A stretch of 64,000 nucleotides of DNA, from positions 310,001 through 374,000 of the forward strand of contig NZ_JATM01000001.1 in assembly GCF_002003665.1 (NCBI RefSeq). Reading direction: 5' to 3'. This document shows, piece after piece, positions 8,190-19,045 of the stretch. The position numbers were made by a program, and so were the translations under genes. The number at the start of each line of letters is the position of its first letter. Position 1 is the first letter of the stretch. Source of the DNA: Bombella intestini (lineage in GTDB: Bacteria; Pseudomonadota; Alphaproteobacteria; Acetobacterales; Acetobacteraceae). Below the pieces are notes generated by a model, which searched no databases, was not told the origin of the DNA, and saw nothing but the letters and a program-made list of their open reading frames with translations.

Positions 8190-9116
8190 TTAGGCGGGTT
8201 TCCGAAGGATGAGTGTACTCCAGGGGCCTTCTCGGAGCTGTTTTTCTAGGACTAGGCCTTGTCTCTGGTGGGCTACCAGTACCATACGGGCTTGCGTATT
8301 GAGCAGCCCAGCTAGAATGGCCGTTCCCCCAGCTTGAAGATTACGGGCAAGGTCCTTGGCCATGCGACACAGCGGGCGGGCTAGAATATTGGCAAATACA
8401 AGGTCATACGGTGCGTTCCGGCGGACAGCTTCTGTATGCCAGCCATTGCCGAAGCGGCAGTCAAGCAGTGGACCGATACCGTTCAGCCGAGCATTCGAGG
8501 CAGCGACACGGACGGACCATGGCTCAATATCTACGGCTAGAACAGGGCGATGGAGTAGACTAGCCGCTGCCATAGCAAGAATACCCGACCCACACCCCAT
8601 ATCTAGAATATGCCGGGGGTGGCGATGGGCGATCATTTCCAATGCCCTCAGGCACCCACGAGTAGAGCCATGTTCTCCAGAGCCAAAGGCAATGCCGGCA
8701 TCTAATGTGATGTTTAGCTTGTTAGAAGGGGGTGTTTCCTGCAAATGCGTTCCTCGGATGCAGAAACGCCGGCCTACATATTGTGGAGGGAAAGCCTCCT
8801 GCGTGCGTGCAAGCCAGCCTTCAGCCTCGATATTCTGTCGGTGTAGGGGAGCTTCAACACCTGTCATAGCACGAACAAGGGCTAGGGCATTGTCCAACTC
8901 CTCTTCGTTCCGGCCCTTTTCCTTAACGGCTTCTAGCCGCCAGTAACGCTGCTCATCATCTTCTTCAAACATCCCGACTGTGTCGCACACTCCAAGAAGA
9001 GCTTGTTCGAAGAGAGGTACATGCATTTCCTCTACTACGATGGAGAGTGTTTCCAGTGCCCGGGCGTGGCGGGTACCAATATGGGACGGGGCGATGGAAC
9101 TTTGTTTGGTCTTCAC
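8190..9116 (-). CDS. prmA: Ribosomal protein L11 methyltransferase PrmA
   Basis: An S-adenosylmethionine-dependent methyltransferase that modifies ribosomal protein L11. The N-terminal substrate-recognition domain is followed by the SAM-binding core with motif I (ILDMGCGSGILAMAA), the acidic end of strand 2 (AVDIEPWSV) and motif IV (DLVFANILARPL), in which Asn-Ile-Leu is typical of PrmA. FGSGEHGSTRGCL before motif I is also characteristic. 308 aa, normal length. Its start overlaps the end of uvrD by 4 bp (ATGA), so translation is likely coupled. Confidence 0.94.
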   Translation of the reverse strand: MKTKQSSIAPSHIGTRHARALETLSIVVEEMHVPLFEQALLGVCDTVGMFEEDDEQRYWRLEAVKEKGRNEEELDNALALVRAMTGVEAPLHRQNIEAEGWLARTQEAFPPQYVGRRFCIRGTHLQETPPSNKLNITLDAGIAFGSGEHGSTRGCLRALEMIAHRHPRHILDMGCGSGILAMAAASLLHRPVLAVDIEPWSVRVAASNARLNGIGPLLDCRFGNGWHTEAVRRNAPYDLVFANILARPLCRMAKDLARNLQAGGTAILAGLLNTQARMVLVAHQRQGLVLEKQLREGPWSTLILRKPA

Positions 9117-11326
9117 GATACGATCTCCACAAAACCGGCCATGATCCGTTTCAGACCGATATTTTCAAAATTGATAGACAGACGATCTTCTTCCGCCCCA
9201 ATGACTACACCTTCACCATAACGTTTATGGCGTACTGTTGCTCCTATAGGGATAGTTGCCTGTACAGGGGAGGGCTTTATGGTGCGTTTTGCTGGGAAAG
9301 GAGCTTGACGATTAAAAAAGCTCTTTGAACCTAGAGCGTGTTCAGCTTTTGCAACATTTCTGATGATGTGGCTTTCAGGCAATTCATCAAGGAAACGGCT
9401 TGGTATAGAATCTTGCCAGTTGGCATAAAGCCTACGGTTATTCGCATACGATATAACCACTCGCTCACGAGCACGGGTCAAGCCAACATAAGCCAACCGC
9501 CTTTCTTCCTCCAAGGACTTATTTCCCCCTTCATCCAAAGAACGCTGAGAAGGGAAGAGACCTTCTTCCCAACCCGGAAGAAAAACATTCGGAAACTCTA
9601 ACCCTTTAGCAGCATGTAAAGTCATTAAACTGACCTTATTCGGGTCGTCCTGTGCATTATCGCTATCCATGACAAGGGCAATATGCTCCAGAAACGCATC
9701 CATTGTCGGAAATTCACCAAGTGCTCGAAGCAATTCCCGTATATTATCAAGGCGTCCCGCTGCCTCTACAGTTTTAGGATCATCCCGCCACATATCCAGA
9801 TAGCCGCTTTCTTCAAGCACCATATCTGTTGCAACAACATGACCCTCCTTACTGACAACCTCCCGAATCTTTACAAGAATATTCATTAGGTCTGTCAAAC
9901 TAGACGCTAACTTACTCTTCAATTCTCCCTGCTGTAACTGATGCTGAAGTGTCTGCTGAAGAGAACAGCCCATATTTTTTGCTGCCGCACGCAGACGGGT
10001 TAAAGCAACCTTGCCAAAGCCTCGTTTGGGTAGATTGACGATACGTTCAAAAGCAAGATCATCAGTAGGGTATAAGACCGCTCGCATATAAGCGATAGCG
10101 TCTCGTATTTCAGCCCGTTCGTAGAACCTTAGACCACCAATGATCTGATAAGGAATCCCCATTTTCATTAATGCATCTTCAAAGGGACGTGTCTGAAAAC
10201 CCGCGCGCATGAGAATAGCAATGGAACCGTAGGACTGACCCGCTGTGTGCAACTCTTGAATACGCCGTCCAATAACACGCGCTTCATCATCTGAATCCGG
10301 CGTATTGATCACCTCGATAGGTTCACCTTCTTCAGTCTTCAACCCAGGACGTAAGACCTTACCCAACCGACCTTCATTATGGGCAATAACCTGTGAAGCT
10401 ACACTCAGAATACGAGGCGTAGAACGGTAGTTCTGTTCCAATCGAATAACTTTTGCACCAGGGAAATCTTTTTCAAATCGCAAAATATTTGCAATATCAG
10501 CACCACGCCACGAATAGATCGATTGGTCATCATCTCCAACACAAGCGATATTCGAATCCTCTCCATCCTGCCTTTTAGCTAGCAAACGGAGCCATAAATA
10601 CTGAATAGCATTCGTATCTTGATACTCATCAACCAGAATATACCGAAAGCGCTGCTGATACTGTTCCAGTACGTCAGGATGCTGACGTAGGATAGTCATC
10701 ATATGCAACATGAGATCCCCAAAATCACATGCGTTTAGCTCTTTAAGACGGGTCTGATAGGCCACATAAATAGCCGGAGCTTGGCCATTCGCTAGTTCAG
10801 ATGTCTGTGCGGGAGTGAGGGCGTCAGGGAGTAGAGCTTGATCTTTCCATAACTGGATCTGATGCATAATCTGGGCCGGAGGGAAGCGTTTAAGATCAAG
10901 TTTCCAAGGTTCAATAACCTGCTTGAGTAGGCGGAGCTGATCATCCGTATCTAGAATGGTGAAGTTACGCTCCAGTCCGACAAGCGGTGCATGTTGCCGT
11001 AGCATACGGGCACAAAGGGAATGAAATGTGCCCAACCATAGGCTATCTATCGACCTGCCAAGGATGGCACTAATACGCTCCCTCATTTCTCTGGCAGCTT
11101 TATTGGTAAAGGTCACAGCAAGAATCTGTTCCGGCCATGCCAGTTTCTCTAACAGGATATGAGCAAACCGTGTTGTCAGAACCCTGGTCTTTCCTGTACC
11201 AGCACCAGCTAGAATCAGGAGGGGACCTTGTGTTGTTTCAACGGCAAGACGCTGCTCTTCATTCAGACCCTGCAGATAATCAGGACCTGCGGGCGGGAAG
11301 CGGGGGGAAAAAAGATCATCCATCAC
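9113..11326 (-). CDS. uvrD: UvrD/PcrA-type DNA helicase
   Basis: A superfamily 1A 3'-5' DNA helicase for repair and for clearing recombination or replication intermediates. Motifs in order: Q motif region LNEEQRLAV, Walker A AGAGTGKT (residues 40-47), motif II VDEYQDTN, motif III GDDDQSIYSWRGA, motif IV LEQNYRST, motif V TLHAAKGLEF and motif VI VGLTRARERV. The C-terminus ends in a Tudor-like domain (GATVRHKRYGEGVV), as in PcrA. 737 aa, so slightly longer than E. coli UvrD (720). UvrD and PcrA cannot be told apart by name here. First gene of the uvrD-prmA-pepP run; divergent from the RadC genes. Confidence 0.93.
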   Translation of the reverse strand: MMDDLFSPRFPPAGPDYLQGLNEEQRLAVETTQGPLLILAGAGTGKTRVLTTRFAHILLEKLAWPEQILAVTFTNKAAREMRERISAILGRSIDSLWLGTFHSLCARMLRQHAPLVGLERNFTILDTDDQLRLLKQVIEPWKLDLKRFPPAQIMHQIQLWKDQALLPDALTPAQTSELANGQAPAIYVAYQTRLKELNACDFGDLMLHMMTILRQHPDVLEQYQQRFRYILVDEYQDTNAIQYLWLRLLAKRQDGEDSNIACVGDDDQSIYSWRGADIANILRFEKDFPGAKVIRLEQNYRSTPRILSVASQVIAHNEGRLGKVLRPGLKTEEGEPIEVINTPDSDDEARVIGRRIQELHTAGQSYGSIAILMRAGFQTRPFEDALMKMGIPYQIIGGLRFYERAEIRDAIAYMRAVLYPTDDLAFERIVNLPKRGFGKVALTRLRAAAKNMGCSLQQTLQHQLQQGELKSKLASSLTDLMNILVKIREVVSKEGHVVATDMVLEESGYLDMWRDDPKTVEAAGRLDNIRELLRALGEFPTMDAFLEHIALVMDSDNAQDDPNKVSLMTLHAAKGLEFPNVFLPGWEEGLFPSQRSLDEGGNKSLEEERRLAYVGLTRARERVVISYANNRRLYANWQDSIPSRFLDELPESHIIRNVAKAEHALGSKSFFNRQAPFPAKRTIKPSPVQATIPIGATVRHKRYGEGVVIGAEEDRLSINFENIGLKRIMAGFVEIVS

Positions 11327-11380
11327 GATTATCTGGTATAATGCGGCTCATACACGCTGGCTAGGATATAACCATAGATT

Positions 11381-12046
11381 GTGAAAAAAGCAGTTTCATC
11401 CAAACAAGGACATAGAGCTAGGATGCGAGAACGTATCCTCATACACGGGGCAGAGACCCTTGCTGATTATGAGCTGTTGGAAGTGTTACTTTTTTACGCC
11501 ATACCAAGACGAGATACGAACCCGCAGGCTAAGGCATTGCTTACGGCTTTTGGATCATTAGGAAGGTTGCTGCAATCTTCTCAAGCCAAACTGAAACAGC
11601 ACGGTCTTACTGACCGTCTCATCACCCTCTTGGAGCTCCCAGTATTGGTTGCTCGTTCTCTCATGGAAAGTGATGATGACATACCACTCCAACTGGGTAA
11701 TGCCTCAGCCTTGATGAATTATCTGAAGGGCACCTTACAGAGAATGCACGAACCGAAAATCGGCCTGATCTGTCTGGATAGTAACAACAGCCTCATTACA
11801 GAAAAGCTCTTGCCTGCCAGCAGCAATTTACACAGCTCCCATCGCTTGATAGCGCAGCATCTTCTTTCTTGTCATGCCACGGCCGCTATCATCGTTTATT
11901 ACCATTCACAATCTCCAGCCACAGCGTTAGCCCCTGAAATACGTGGATTGAAGTTGGCATTGCAAACTTTGGATATCCTCGTACATGAGGGAGTCCTCAT
12001 AGGGGATGGGTGGTATGTCAGTATGAGCGAATCAGGGCTTCTATAA
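11381..12046 (+). CDS. RadC-family protein with degenerate JAMM motif
   Basis: A full-length RadC/UPF0758 protein (221 aa). The N-terminal part is well kept: GHRARMRERIL, DYELLEVLLFYAIPRRDTNPQAKALL and FGSLGRLL. The C-terminal JAB/MPN domain is recognisable but its metal site is altered. Where active members read H-N-H-P-S-G and a downstream Asp, this one has Y173-Y174-H175, and E186 stands at the Asp position. A zinc-dependent peptidase or deubiquitinase-like activity is therefore unlikely. An intact-motif RadC gene follows 33 bases later, which suggests a pseudoenzyme/enzyme pair. Despite the name, a DNA-repair role for RadC is not established. Confidence 0.85.
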   Translation: MKKAVSSKQGHRARMRERILIHGAETLADYELLEVLLFYAIPRRDTNPQAKALLTAFGSLGRLLQSSQAKLKQHGLTDRLITLLELPVLVARSLMESDDDIPLQLGNASALMNYLKGTLQRMHEPKIGLICLDSNNSLITEKLLPASSNLHSSHRLIAQHLLSCHATAAIIVYYHSQSPATALAPEIRGLKLALQTLDILVHEGVLIGDGWYVSMSESGLL

Positions 12047-12079
12047 GGAGCAAAAATAATTACAAAGCATCAATTATCC

Positions 12080-12691
12080 GTGGAAGAAATCTTCCACAGG
12101 GTTGCGTCTTTTATCGTATCTAGTGAAGAAGCACGTAAAGAATTAGCAAAACATTTACTGCTCCATCATGAATCACTAGCTGCACTTATTTTTGATCAAC
12201 CAACGGACCGAAAGAATATCGCCAAAGAGAACATATCTCTGGCCGTATTTTGTGCTGTATTGAAAGAGCTTGCCCATCGGTATGGACGTGCCCTTCTACC
12301 AGAAGGGAATTTGTTAGAACAACCGGATGTGCTGAAAGACTACTTGATGGTTCAGATGGCTCGGGAAAAGGTGGAGCAATTCCGTATCCTTTTCCTTAAC
12401 CAGAAGAACTACCTTATCCGTGATGAAGTACAGAACCATGGTACAACCAACCATGTATCAGTCTATCCACGAGAGATAGCCAAACGCTGCTTGGAGTTAA
12501 AAGCAACGGGCATCATCATAGTTCACAACCATCCATCAGGACAGGTCAACCCATCTCGCAGTGATATCATCATGACTCAAAATATTGAAAAGGCCCTAGC
12601 TGTCATAGATATCAAACTGATTGACCATTTCATCATCACAAAAAAAGCCCAAACCAGCTTTCGCCAGCTCGGGCTTTTTGATGATGATTGA
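12080..12691 (+). CDS. radC: RadC-family protein with intact JAMM motif
   Basis: A 203-residue RadC-like protein. The JAB/MPN domain is complete, with H149-N-H151-P-S-G and D162 giving the canonical H-x-H-x10-D zinc site; DEVQNHGTTNH and VYPREI precede it, and the family ending SFRQLGLF is present. The N-terminal region is short and very diverged: the usual HRERLRER and helix-hairpin-helix-like segments are not recognisable. The first GTG, at 12080, has no ribosome site, while AAGGAG at 12045-12050 is 8 bases from an in-frame ATT at 12059. The true start may be that rare codon. Its stop abuts that of purK. Confidence 0.85.
   Translation: MEEIFHRVASFIVSSEEARKELAKHLLLHHESLAALIFDQPTDRKNIAKENISLAVFCAVLKELAHRYGRALLPEGNLLEQPDVLKDYLMVQMAREKVEQFRILFLNQKNYLIRDEVQNHGTTNHVSVYPREIAKRCLELKATGIIIVHNHPSGQVNPSRSDIIMTQNIEKALAVIDIKLIDHFIITKKAQTSFRQLGLFDDD
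12642..12679 (-). terminator. Bidirectional terminator inside the radC 3' end, serving purK
   Basis: AAAAAGCCC (12642-12650) pairs with GGGCTTTTT (12671-12679). On the minus strand this lies 13 bases after the purK stop and ends in a T-run. On the plus strand it lies within the last codons of radC, which encode the conserved family ending. The sequence thus appears to serve as both code and terminator. Confidence 0.7.
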
Positions 12692-16571: not shown

Positions 16572-17501
16572 TCATCCTTCCCGCCGCAATCTCTTCTGTC
16601 CCATTAAAAGCAGAAGCGGGGCAGCAATAAAGATAGATGATGATGTTCCTACCACGATACCGAACAGCATGACGGTAGCAAAGCCTGTCAAGGTACTGCC
16701 ACCAAACAGAGCCAAAGGCAAAGCAGCGAGAAACACTGTCATAGATGTTCCCAGTGTCCGGTTAAGCGTCTCATTGATGGAAAGGTCAAGAAGTTCCCGT
16801 AGAGGCATTGTCCGATACTTGCGGAGATTCTCACGAACACGGTCATAAACGACGACTTTATCGTTTGTGGAGTACCCAAGAATGGTAAGCAGTGCGGCTA
16901 CCATGACGAGATCAAATTCAAAACGTGTGACTATCAGAAAACCGATGGTCTTTGTTAGGTCCAGCACAAGTGTAATGACGGCACTTAGGGCAAATTCTCG
17001 TTCAAATCGAAACCAGATATAAATGAGAATCATTCCAAGACTGAATAGGAGTGCCAGAACACCATCACGGAACAGCTCAGAGGAAACGGCCCCGCCCACT
17101 GCATCGGCCCTTTGAATCTGAACACCGGGAATAGCCTGCACAATGACAGCCCGGACATGATCGACCAGTTTCTGGGTAACATGCTCATCCTCCCCACCGC
17201 GGGGGAGATTGATAGCAATTCGGACATCCTGAGGTGACCCGAAGGATTGAACAGAAGCCGCATTGATCTGACCAGCCTTCAGAACAGCCCGCATATGTGC
17301 AGGGTCTTCCGCAGTTGGAGAGTGGGTCTCTACGATAACGCCGCCACGGAAATCCAACCCAAGATTCAGGCCAGGTGCGAAAAACAACACCACCGAAGCG
17401 ATGGAAAGGAGTGCAGAAACGATCAAACCGGCATGACGGCCACGCATGAAGCGGATCTGTCGGTCATCACGTACGAAACGGAGAAGAGGGCGAGAAAACA
17501 T
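16572..17501 (-). CDS. secF: Protein translocase subunit SecF
   Basis: Works with SecD to drive late export through SecYEG using the proton motive force. It is a six-TM protein of the RND superfamily: TM1 near residues 27-47, a periplasmic domain beginning GLDFRGGVIVETHSP, then five TM helices with GYSTNDKVVVYDRVREN and the conserved NETLNRTLGTSMTVFLA. 309 aa, typical. It follows secD by five bases and ends at a strong terminator, so the unit is secD-secF. yajC is not next to it. Confidence 0.97.
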   Translation of the reverse strand: MFSRPLLRFVRDDRQIRFMRGRHAGLIVSALLSIASVVLFFAPGLNLGLDFRGGVIVETHSPTAEDPAHMRAVLKAGQINAASVQSFGSPQDVRIAINLPRGGEDEHVTQKLVDHVRAVIVQAIPGVQIQRADAVGGAVSSELFRDGVLALLFSLGMILIYIWFRFEREFALSAVITLVLDLTKTIGFLIVTRFEFDLVMVAALLTILGYSTNDKVVVYDRVRENLRKYRTMPLRELLDLSINETLNRTLGTSMTVFLAALPLALFGGSTLTGFATVMLFGIVVGTSSSIFIAAPLLLLMGQKRLRREG

Positions 17502-17506
17502 GGCGA

Positions 17507-19045
17507 TCAGACCGGCAGTTCTTGTGGACGTTTATGAGCATACCAACGGACAATCAGCATGCGGGATAGTACCAGTGTCGTGAACAGTGTGGTGACGATA
17601 CCAATGGTGATGGTCAAGGCAAAGTTTCGGACAGCCCCAGTACCGAAGACAAAGAGCATGACATGCGCAAGAAAGGCTGTGGCATTACTGTCGATAATCG
17701 TACTCGTTGCCCGCTGGAACCCAGCCTGTAGAGCCTGAAGTGGCTTGCGCCCATTCCGGACTTCTTCCCGAATACGTTCATTGATGAGGATGTTAGCATC
17801 CACAGCCATACCGAGCGTCAACAAGATGCCTGCCATACCCGGCAATGTCAGGGTTGCTTCGAAAAGAGATAGAATAGCCAAAATCATGACAAGGTTGGCA
17901 AAAAGAGCAACATCCGCATAAAGGCCAAACCGACCGTAGAAGAGCAGCATGAACAGTACGACCAGCACAAAGCCAACAATAAGGCTGATAATACCTGCAT
18001 GAATGGATGCTGCACCTAGGCTTGGCCCAATGCTCCGCTGTTCCACCACGGTAAGCGGGGCGGGAAGCGCACCGGCACGTAGCAGTAATGCCAGATCAGA
18101 GGCCGACCGAGCCGTAAAGCTGCCTGTGATAATCCCTTGGCCAGCCGTAATTGGGCCATTGATGACCGGACTTGTCAGGATGCGGCCATCCAGCACGATA
18201 GCAAATGGCTTGCCAACATTCTGTGTTGTGATGCGGGCAAAGTCATCGGCTCCCTTATTGTCGAACTTCAATTCGACAACCCACTGTCCTTCGCTCATCG
18301 TGGCGGCAGCATCCGTCAGGTTAGCACCATCGACATCAATTCTGTCTTCCACAGCCAGCTCCCCACGCCCTTCGGACAAAGGCAGCATAGTTGTGCCGGG
18401 TCCAGCATGAATAGGGTCTGGAGAGACAAGGTGAAAGGTCATACGAGCCGTCGTACCGAGTAACGTTTTGATACGCTGAGGATCGCTAATGCCAGGGAGC
18501 TCCAGCACAATACGATCTTCACCTTCACGGGCGATGCTTGGATCAATGGCACCGGTGCTGTCGATACGGCGGCGCACGATCTCAATAGAACGTGAAACGG
18601 CCTCCCGGGCACGGCTACGGATGGCCTCTGGTGTCAGGCTGACGATAAACTGGCCATTCTTTTCACTGACAGCAAGTTCACCGGGACTAGATGGTGTCAG
18701 CCCTTCTAGAACTTTTCGGTCGCTATCTTTTTCGCTATCTGACCGAGGCGTAACCAGCACGGAAGCCATAGCATCATCACGCTCAATATTGCGATAGCCG
18801 AGATGAGCCGTCAGCAATCCCTGGCGTACTTCACCCTCTAGAGACTGAAGCCGGTCATGCTGGAGTGTCTTCGTATCCAGCTGCAACAGGAGATAGGAAC
18901 CACCTCGCAGATCAAGCCCAAGATGCACCTGATGCCAGGGCAGGAATGATGAGGGGGATTTCATGAAATTAGGAAGACAGAGGAGGGCACTGATCAGGCA
19001 GATGCCCACCACGCCTAACATCCTGAGGCGACTGTAATACAACAT
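17507..19045 (-). CDS. secD: Protein translocase subunit SecD
   Basis: Partner of SecF. One N-terminal TM helix is followed by HLGLDLRGGSYLLLQ, a large P1 periplasmic domain (with RIVLELPGI and the GRILTSPVINGPI region), and a C-terminal five-TM block containing GMAVDANILINERIREE, the conserved SecD signature. 512 aa, within the usual range for alphaproteobacteria, which have a shorter P1 head than E. coli. Divergent from the Gfo/Idh oxidoreductase gene. Confidence 0.97.
   Translation of the reverse strand: MLYYSRLRMLGVVGICLISALLCLPNFMKSPSSFLPWHQVHLGLDLRGGSYLLLQLDTKTLQHDRLQSLEGEVRQGLLTAHLGYRNIERDDAMASVLVTPRSDSEKDSDRKVLEGLTPSSPGELAVSEKNGQFIVSLTPEAIRSRAREAVSRSIEIVRRRIDSTGAIDPSIAREGEDRIVLELPGISDPQRIKTLLGTTARMTFHLVSPDPIHAGPGTTMLPLSEGRGELAVEDRIDVDGANLTDAAATMSEGQWVVELKFDNKGADDFARITTQNVGKPFAIVLDGRILTSPVINGPITAGQGIITGSFTARSASDLALLLRAGALPAPLTVVEQRSIGPSLGAASIHAGIISLIVGFVLVVLFMLLFYGRFGLYADVALFANLVMILAILSLFEATLTLPGMAGILLTLGMAVDANILINERIREEVRNGRKPLQALQAGFQRATSTIIDSNATAFLAHVMLFVFGTGAVRNFALTITIGIVTTLFTTLVLSRMLIVRWYAHKRPQELPV

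What the first reader, a model, noticed from the sequence alone, without database searches (positions are those of the whole stretch)
11381..12691. Adjacent RadC proteins: an MPN-minus pseudoenzyme next to an MPN-plus enzyme
Both genes encode RadC/JAB-domain proteins. The first keeps the N-terminal domain but has Y173-x-H175-x10-E186 where zinc ligands are needed. The second keeps H149-x-H151-x10-D162 but has lost a recognisable N-terminal domain. The loss is complementary: one has the DNA-binding-like part, the other the catalytic site. In eukaryotes MPN-plus and MPN-minus proteins work as obligate pairs (Rpn11/Rpn8). A bacterial RadC pair of this kind, cotranscribed and spaced 33 bp apart, may act as a heterodimer. 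RadC's true function is unsettled, so this is a useful handle.
Basis: partly seen in the sequence, partly recalled or inferred. Interest (0 to 1): 0.62.

Follow-up and report, generated by a model that had tools for sequence, protein, structure and literature searches.

The report
RadC split into dead and live halves
Acetic acid bacteria carry two copies of the poorly understood protein RadC that have worn down in opposite ways, one keeping the front domain and the other the metal-binding active site, which suggests that the two proteins now do one job together.

Summary
Gene A (11381-12046) keeps RadC's N-terminal domain, but its JAB domain lacks the zinc site. Gene B (12059 or 12080-12691) keeps the zinc ligands and has no recognisable N-terminal domain. 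Of 112 acetic-acid-bacterium (AAB) genomes that I picked, 109 carry both parts and 3 neither. No A copy of 107 keeps both histidines; all 110 B-type copies keep H-x-H, S and D. UPF0758_N is found in 106 of 107 A and 1 of 108 B. A and B form one clade each: one old split. A's dead JAB domain is under purifying selection, weaker than B's. One genome fuses A and B. In 111 control RadC genes none lost both histidines this way; 106 are intact. So A is not decaying. A physical A-B complex is likely, not shown: AlphaFold pTM 0.68 in one pair, an indecisive 0.58 in another. In 49 of 55 wide-gap pairs an opposite-strand HAD gene lies between A and B, so co-transcription is not general.

The parts
11381..12046 (+). 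gene A: RadC paralogue with UPF0758_N domain and MPN-minus (zinc-site-less) JAB domain, 221 aa, GTG start
11417..11608 (+). UPF0758_N domain of A (residues 13-76); holds most of the columns of A conserved at 90% or more across genera
11699..12040 (+). JAB domain of A (residues 107-220), zinc site lost
11897..11938 (+). Y173-Y174-H175 ... L183 ... E186 in place of H-x-H-x7-S-x2-D
12045..12050 (+). AAGGAG, Shine-Dalgarno-like, overlapping the TAA stop of A
   Evidence: inference
12059..12061 (+). ATT, the likely non-canonical start codon of B in this species group (GTG at 12080 is not conserved)
   Evidence: inference
12317..12673 (+). JAB domain of B (residues 80-198)
12524..12565 (+). JAMM motif of B: H149-N-H151-x7-S159-x2-D162
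11334..11342 (+). TGGTATAAT, extended -10-like sequence upstream of A; not reported by the two-hexamer promoter scan
   Evidence: read directly; the scan found one site only, elsewhere on the minus strand, against 2.6 expected
9113..11326 (-). uvrD/pcrA-type helicase gene, divergent from A; also beside A, the A remnant or the A-B fusion in G049, G337 and G075
   Evidence: gene name from recall

Best explanation
RadC was duplicated once, at or before the base of the sampled acetic-acid-bacterium clade, and the copies then lost opposite parts. A kept the N-terminal UPF0758_N domain and a JAB domain without the zinc site. B kept the zinc ligands and let its N-terminal region decay. Most likely mechanism: A and B form an obligate heteromer, probably through their JAB domains. 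A supplies the N-terminal binding function (DNA or another partner) and B supplies the single active site. So one MPN-minus and one MPN-plus subunit replace an ancestral RadC that carried both parts in one chain. Shown: complementary degeneration, long retention under selection, joint presence and joint loss, one natural fusion. Inferred: physical binding, the interface, what the N-terminal domain binds, and any enzymatic activity.
For: Motif: 0 of 107 A keep both His; 110 of 110 B-type copies keep H-x-H, S and D. Domains: UPF0758_N in 106 of 107 A (the miss, L146, is cut by a contig end) and 1 of 108 B; RadC JAB in 106 of 107 A and 108 of 108 B. Tree: A one clade (34 rows, SH-aLRT 100), B one clade (36 rows, 99) in a quick tree of 88 rows. 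Selection: pooled dN/dS of A's JAB domain 0.075 (g85, 11 pairs) to 0.361 (g56, 6 pairs) in eight genera; in the window's genus 0.079 from 5 of 55 pairs in the dS range. Presence: both parts in 109 of 112 chosen genomes, neither in 3. Joint loss: G337 keeps only remnants of both; G039 and G125 (g30, inside the AAB clade of the UvrD tree) have neither. Fusion: in G075 one 626-codon stop-free frame holds the A part with its dead JAB and a live RadC JAB. Pairs on one fetched locus: same strand in 93 of 93, tight or overlapping in 38 of 93; 4-nt overlap in 3 of 3 g101 genomes and one Bombella. Distances: partial r(A,B given UvrD) 0.69, reached by 0 of 2000 permutations, 18 genomes. AlphaFold of the window pair as one read-through chain: pLDDT 82.6, pTM 0.68, against about 0.54-0.57 at most with no information across subunits.
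Against: The second pair gave pTM 0.58, near its no-information bound of 0.55-0.58, and no interface could be inspected. The read-through chain has an artificial short linker. In 49 of 55 wide-gap pairs an opposite-strand gene separates A and B, in 15 genomes the genes are not side by side, and in G019 they point in opposite directions. Joint loss counts only two independent events. The fusion is one genome; a stop-free 135-codon linker has chance about 0.045 by composition. In G134 B has an in-frame stop while A is open. A's JAB domain is less constrained than B's in 8 of 8 genera. In 13 of 110 B-type copies the motif's Glu aligns with a letter other than E or D, so B is not always a textbook JAMM enzyme. 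The distance correlation used one control gene. I picked the 112 genomes partly by their match pattern, so co-occurrence is not an unbiased estimate.
Confidence: 0.6

Rival explanations
1. Division of labour without a complex: A became a free-standing N-domain (DNA-binding or regulatory) protein and B a free-standing JAMM metalloenzyme in the same pathway; the dead JAB of A is kept only as a scaffold or for A-A dimers.
For: Genes not side by side in eight g40 genomes, four g31 genomes, G019, G023 and G256; an opposite-strand HAD gene between them in 49 of 55 wide-gap pairs. AlphaFold evidence for contact indecisive in one of two pairs.
Against: Natural A-B fusion, overlapping genes in g101, joint decay in G337 and joint absence in g30, distance correlation beyond UvrD.
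Confidence: 0.27
2. Regulatory pseudoenzyme: A and B each form their own dimers and A competes with or inhibits the assembly or activity of B.
For: A keeps a JAB-like order of strands and helices in the model and purifying selection on that domain; pseudoenzyme regulators are common (recalled).
Against: No direct evidence; steady joint retention and a fusion fit a constitutive partner better than an inhibitor.
Confidence: 0.08
3. A is a decaying pseudogene copy beside the working gene B.
For: A's JAB domain has lost its zinc site and A scores below the NCBIfam RadC cut-offs.
Against: 107 A genes in 23 genera, 106 of them full-length open frames and one cut by a contig end; dN/dS well under 1 in both domains; N-terminal columns conserved at 90% or more.
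Confidence: 0.02

Closest known systems
RadC family (PF20582 UPF0758_N + PF04002 RadC JAB; NCBIfam TIGR00608, NF000642)
   Same: Both proteins descend from it; A keeps its N-terminal domain, B its JAB domain with the zinc ligands. The B part of the model aligns to C. tepidum RadC 2qlc_A with Z 17.0, 2.5 A, 126 residues.
   Different: Canonical RadC carries both in one chain: of 111 control genes with UPF0758_N from other proteobacteria 106 have an intact motif and 105 have it in the same open frame as the N-terminal part. Here the two parts sit on two proteins.
MPN-plus/MPN-minus heterodimers: Rpn11-Rpn8, CSN5-CSN6, BRCC36-KIAA0157
   Same: One catalytic and one ligand-less MPN domain kept together (recalled; titles of PDB rows and paper listings). 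Chains of 4ocl and 5cw3 are among the structural matches of the B domain, Z 7.2 and 8.0, a range that may mean only a common fold.
   Different: No shared ancestry of the pairing is suggested, and binding is not shown here.
JAB-type proteases of bacterial systems: BubCD (9ea4), Cap3 (9ild)
   Same: JAB fold, Z 9.3 and 6.8.
   Different: I saw no ubiquitin-like, E1 or E2 gene among the immediate neighbours in the window by eye (no family search made for them): uvrD upstream and purK/purE-like genes downstream, names recalled.

Membership tests
RadC (protein A) | UPF0758_N domain over Pfam cut-off | tested here: met
   31.2 bits against 27.1; 106 of 107 A at E <= 0.01
RadC (protein A) | RadC JAB domain over Pfam cut-off | tested here: met
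   38.6 bits against 22.1
RadC (protein A) | JAMM zinc site H-x-H-x7-S-x2-D | tested here: not met
   window A has Y, H, L, E at these places; 0 of 107 A with both His
RadC (protein A) | NCBIfam TIGR00608 / NF000642 cut-offs | tested here: not met
   73.7 of 133.85 and 80.6 of 180 bits
RadC (protein B) | RadC JAB domain and zinc ligands of the JAMM motif | tested here: met
   141.9 bits; H-x-H, S, D in 110 of 110 B-type copies
RadC (protein B) | UPF0758_N domain | tested here: not met
   not found in the window B; 1 of 108 B at E <= 0.01
RadC (protein B) | NCBIfam TIGR00608 / NF000642 cut-offs | tested here: inconclusive
   146.5 against 133.85 (passes) and 162.9 against 180 (fails)
MPN-plus/MPN-minus heterodimer (kind of system) | one partner with, one without the zinc site, stably paired | tested here: met
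   both parts in 109 of 112 chosen genomes, neither in 3
MPN-plus/MPN-minus heterodimer (kind of system) | the two MPN domains bind each other | tested here: inconclusive
   pTM 0.68 and 0.58 for two read-through pairs; no interface could be read
MPN-plus/MPN-minus heterodimer (kind of system) | catalysis by the MPN-plus partner depends on the MPN-minus partner | not testable with these tools
   needs biochemistry

The most novel reading that the evidence does not exclude
A bacterial MPN-plus/MPN-minus obligate heterodimer that arose by splitting RadC between two duplicates at the base of the acetic acid bacteria, independently of the eukaryotic Rpn11-Rpn8 type. One subunit carries the N-terminal binding domain and the other the only active site, so RadC's two functions can be deleted one at a time in a natural system.
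Probability: 0.5. Interest if true: 0.78.

Novelty: new variant of a known kind. Interest (0 to 1): 0.62.

Why it matters
RadC is widespread and its function is unsettled: PMC11981726 (passages) says it appears unrelated to DNA repair, while PMC5571576 (passages) describes it as acting in recombination repair at replication forks. In acetic acid bacteria evolution has already separated its N-terminal domain from its zinc site. Deleting one gene, the other, or both would show whether the two parts serve one pathway and which part carries any phenotype. If A and B bind, it is a bacterial parallel to the MPN-plus/MPN-minus pairs of the proteasome and signalosome. I found no report of it in the held library; most subscription journals and all bioRxiv preprints are outside it.

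Tried and rejected
Recent decay of A: rejected. MPN-minus RadC as a common event elsewhere: not seen in 111 control loci (68, all its 70 rows but G000 and G049; 43 new ones, six of its rows not fetched: G482, G492, G495, G500, G501, G508). Of the 111, 106 have an intact motif, 1 has Asp to Asn (L286) and 4 are interrupted (L303, L314, L319, L347); one of the 106, L346, has the N-terminal part and the motif in different frames. Co-transcription as a general property: rejected. The two-hexamer promoter scan found nothing for A. A first mixed alignment (A4) put most diverged A rows on the B half, A7 misplaced three B rows, and A6 was made but not used; A5 and A8 were folded. Foldseek and VIA on the joined model are dominated by the B domain, so A's own fold was not tested by structure search; the second model was not searched.

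No unbiased draw of AAB genera was made. I chose 99 genomes of 24 genera from the 397-genome tables by match pattern or small genome, to which I added the window's genus (11 genomes) and g30 (2). In the UvrD tree 21 of these 26 genera form one clade; g23, g26, g34, g37 and g48 were not in that tree, and the other genera of the family were not placed. Rows dropped before counts: from the motif counts the fusion G075, G023's A (found later), and pieces under 110 aa (G337, G023's L151); L152 and L172 are extra B-type paralogues counted in the 110 and left out of the 108. L146, L142, L152 and L197 were left out of the RadC tree, which used at most 2 rows per genus and type and every second canonical row; the UvrD row of G043 was lost in extraction.

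Full report
What is in the window. Two RadC-type genes lie head to tail at 11381-12046 (A) and 12059 or 12080-12691 (B), with a uvrD-type helicase gene divergent upstream and, downstream on the other strand, a gene I name purK from recall. Pfam finds UPF0758_N and a weak RadC JAB domain in A, and a strong RadC JAB domain without UPF0758_N in B. The genome, 2.02 Mb in 12 contigs, has no other RadC hit. A narrow scan of named genomes returned five relatives of A: Bombella favorum, B. apis, B. dulcis and B. mellum and one isolate named only as Acetobacteraceae, 78-95% identical.

Zinc site. The JAMM motif is E-xn-H-S/T-H-x7-S-x2-D (abstract of PMC300881 as shown). B has H149, H151, S159 and D162. 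A has Y173, H175, L183 and E186 at the same spacing, so it keeps at most two possible ligands. Over 107 A copies the first His position is R in 45, Y in 18, H in 16, Q in 11 and others in 17; no copy keeps both His. All 110 B-type copies keep both His, S and D. The Glu of the motif is E in 89 of the 110, D in 8 and other letters in 13: eight g40 genomes, four g73 genomes and G023. This goes against the simple reading that B is always a complete JAMM enzyme, unless the alignment is shifted there.

How wide. A Pfam search of 397 Acetobacteraceae genomes gave RadC hits at E <= 0.01 in 382. From its table I picked 99 genomes of 24 genera with the strong-plus-weak pattern or small genomes, and took coordinates and DNA. 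With 11 Bombella-type genomes (genus g1) and two genomes of g30 that is 112. A and B as separate genes are in 107 of these plus G023, whose A was found 109 kb from B. G075 has them fused. That makes 109. G337 has only remnants of both. G039 and G125 have neither. One of the 109, G134, has an in-frame stop in B. Picking by pattern is a bias: the count shows that the pair is widespread, not its exact frequency. A UvrD tree (29 rows) puts 21 of the 26 genera, g30 included, in one clade with support 91/87, and g77, which also lacks RadC, outside it.

Origin and age. In a quick maximum-likelihood tree of 88 RadC rows A is one side of a branch (34 rows, SH-aLRT 100) and B another (36 rows, 99); B branches from among the 18 canonical RadC rows of other Acetobacteraceae. 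G075's two halves and B of G023 are long rows of unsure place. This fits one duplication at or before the base of the sampled clade, then loss of the zinc site in A and of the N-terminal domain in B.

Is A alive? Nei-Gojobori dN/dS over pairs with dS 0.1-1.5 gives medians for A of 0.07-0.29 in five genera. Split by domain in eight genera, A's dead JAB domain has pooled values 0.075-0.361 and its N-terminal part 0.061-0.383; B's JAB domain has 0.026-0.239 and is the more constrained in 8 of 8 genera. So both parts of A are under purifying selection, the dead domain less strongly than its live counterpart. In A the columns conserved at 90% or more lie mostly in the N-terminal domain; in B the 12 invariant columns include the motif's two His, Ser and Asp.

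Is this usual for RadC? As a control I took UPF0758_N-bearing genes from 68 genomes, one for each of 68 other alphaproteobacterial families, and from 43 further proteobacterial genomes. Intact motif: 64 of 68 and 42 of 43, and in 105 of the 111 it is in the same open frame as the N-terminal part. The exceptions are one Asp to Asn change and four interrupted genes. No control gene lost the two histidines the way A did.

Do A and B touch? For: the fusion in G075, a 626-codon stop-free frame with UPF0758_N (19.7 bits, below the cut-off), an A-type dead JAB and a RadC JAB at 119 bits. Its 135-codon linker has no stop in frame, against 1 and 5 in the other forward frames; chance by composition 0.045. 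For: overlapping or abutting genes (gap 125 nt or less) in 38 of 93 pairs held on one locus. For: after regression on UvrD distances, A and B distances still correlate (0.69; 0 of 2000 permutations; 18 genomes). AlphaFold on the window pair read through the stop gave pTM 0.68. With no information across subunits the most to expect is about 0.54-0.57, so the model places the subunits with moderate confidence. The same test on a pair from genus g54 gave pTM 0.58, too close to its bound (0.55-0.58) to count, though 56 of its 476 residues have pLDDT under 50. Against: in 49 of the 55 wide-gap pairs an opposite-strand frame with a DLDGT-type motif lies between A and B; four of four that I scanned are HAD hydrolases by Pfam. 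In 15 genomes the genes are not side by side. Close linkage is therefore not required for the pair to persist.

Structure. The B half of the model matches C. tepidum RadC 2qlc_A (Z 17.0, rmsd 2.5, 126 aligned) and, lower, archaeal and eukaryotic MPN proteins including Rpn8-Rpn11 chains (Z 6.7-7.2, a range that may mean only a common arrangement). A's strand and helix order in the model follows the same pattern, but no row tests the A half.

Start of B. In G000, G003 and G009 the stop of A overlaps a Shine-Dalgarno-like stretch (AAGGAG in G000 and G003, AAGGAA in G009), followed by ATAATTAC in all three. ATT is a known rare start codon (recalled). I take 12059 as the likely start, untested.

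Literature. Searches in the held library returned no report, as far as listings and abstract starts show, of a RadC pair in acetic acid bacteria or of an MPN-minus RadC. PMC11981726 (passages) says that no study exists on RadC-like DinG proteins and that RadC appears unrelated to DNA repair, citing Attaiech 2008. PMC5571576 (passages) lists Zymomonas radC among thermotolerance genes and, citing Saveson and Lovett 1999, describes RadC as a recombination repair protein. PMC300881: passages only. Other papers were seen as listings only.

Verdict. A real, old and well-conserved split of RadC. The heteromer reading is the best explanation at 0.6, with division of labour without contact as the main rival.

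Noticed in passing
window 12045-12080: Gene B in the window and two sister genomes (G003, G009) seems to lack a conserved ATG/GTG/TTG start; a Shine-Dalgarno-like stretch on the A stop is followed by ATA-ATT, suggesting a rare ATT start.
   Followed up: partly
L326 about 17393-18850, L327 about 686-2130, L347 (same genes as L314, L319): In three other alphaproteobacterial families radC is cut at the same point, just after the codons for HNHP (CACAACCAYCCCACT), by DNA that begins with related tyrosine recombinases (Phage_integrase by Pfam in L326 and L327; by sequence likeness in L347). The other half of radC was not found in the 19-20 kb fetched for two of them. radC's active-site codons look like an attachment site.
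   Followed up: partly
L328 155-18324: radC of G458 is interrupted by about 17.5 kb of DNA that includes a serine-recombinase-like gene (named from recall); the two radC parts lie at its ends.
   Followed up: no
L156 3438-3779: In G224 (g54) a CRISPR-like array of 6 repeats at 61-nt spacing lies in the A-B gap.
   Followed up: no
between A and B in 49 of 55 wide-gap loci, e.g. L173 3464-4156, L194 3372-4067, L143 3516-4217: An opposite-strand HAD hydrolase gene sits between A and B, a conserved but unexplained gene order (Pfam on four).
   Followed up: partly
B of eight g40 genomes (L111-L125) and four g73 genomes (L188-L191): B there keeps H-x-H, S and D but has S/T/I or R where the motif's Glu aligns; possibly an alignment shift or a change in chemistry.
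   Followed up: no
L142 (G134): B has an in-frame TGA while A is open; sequencing error or early loss not decided.
   Followed up: no
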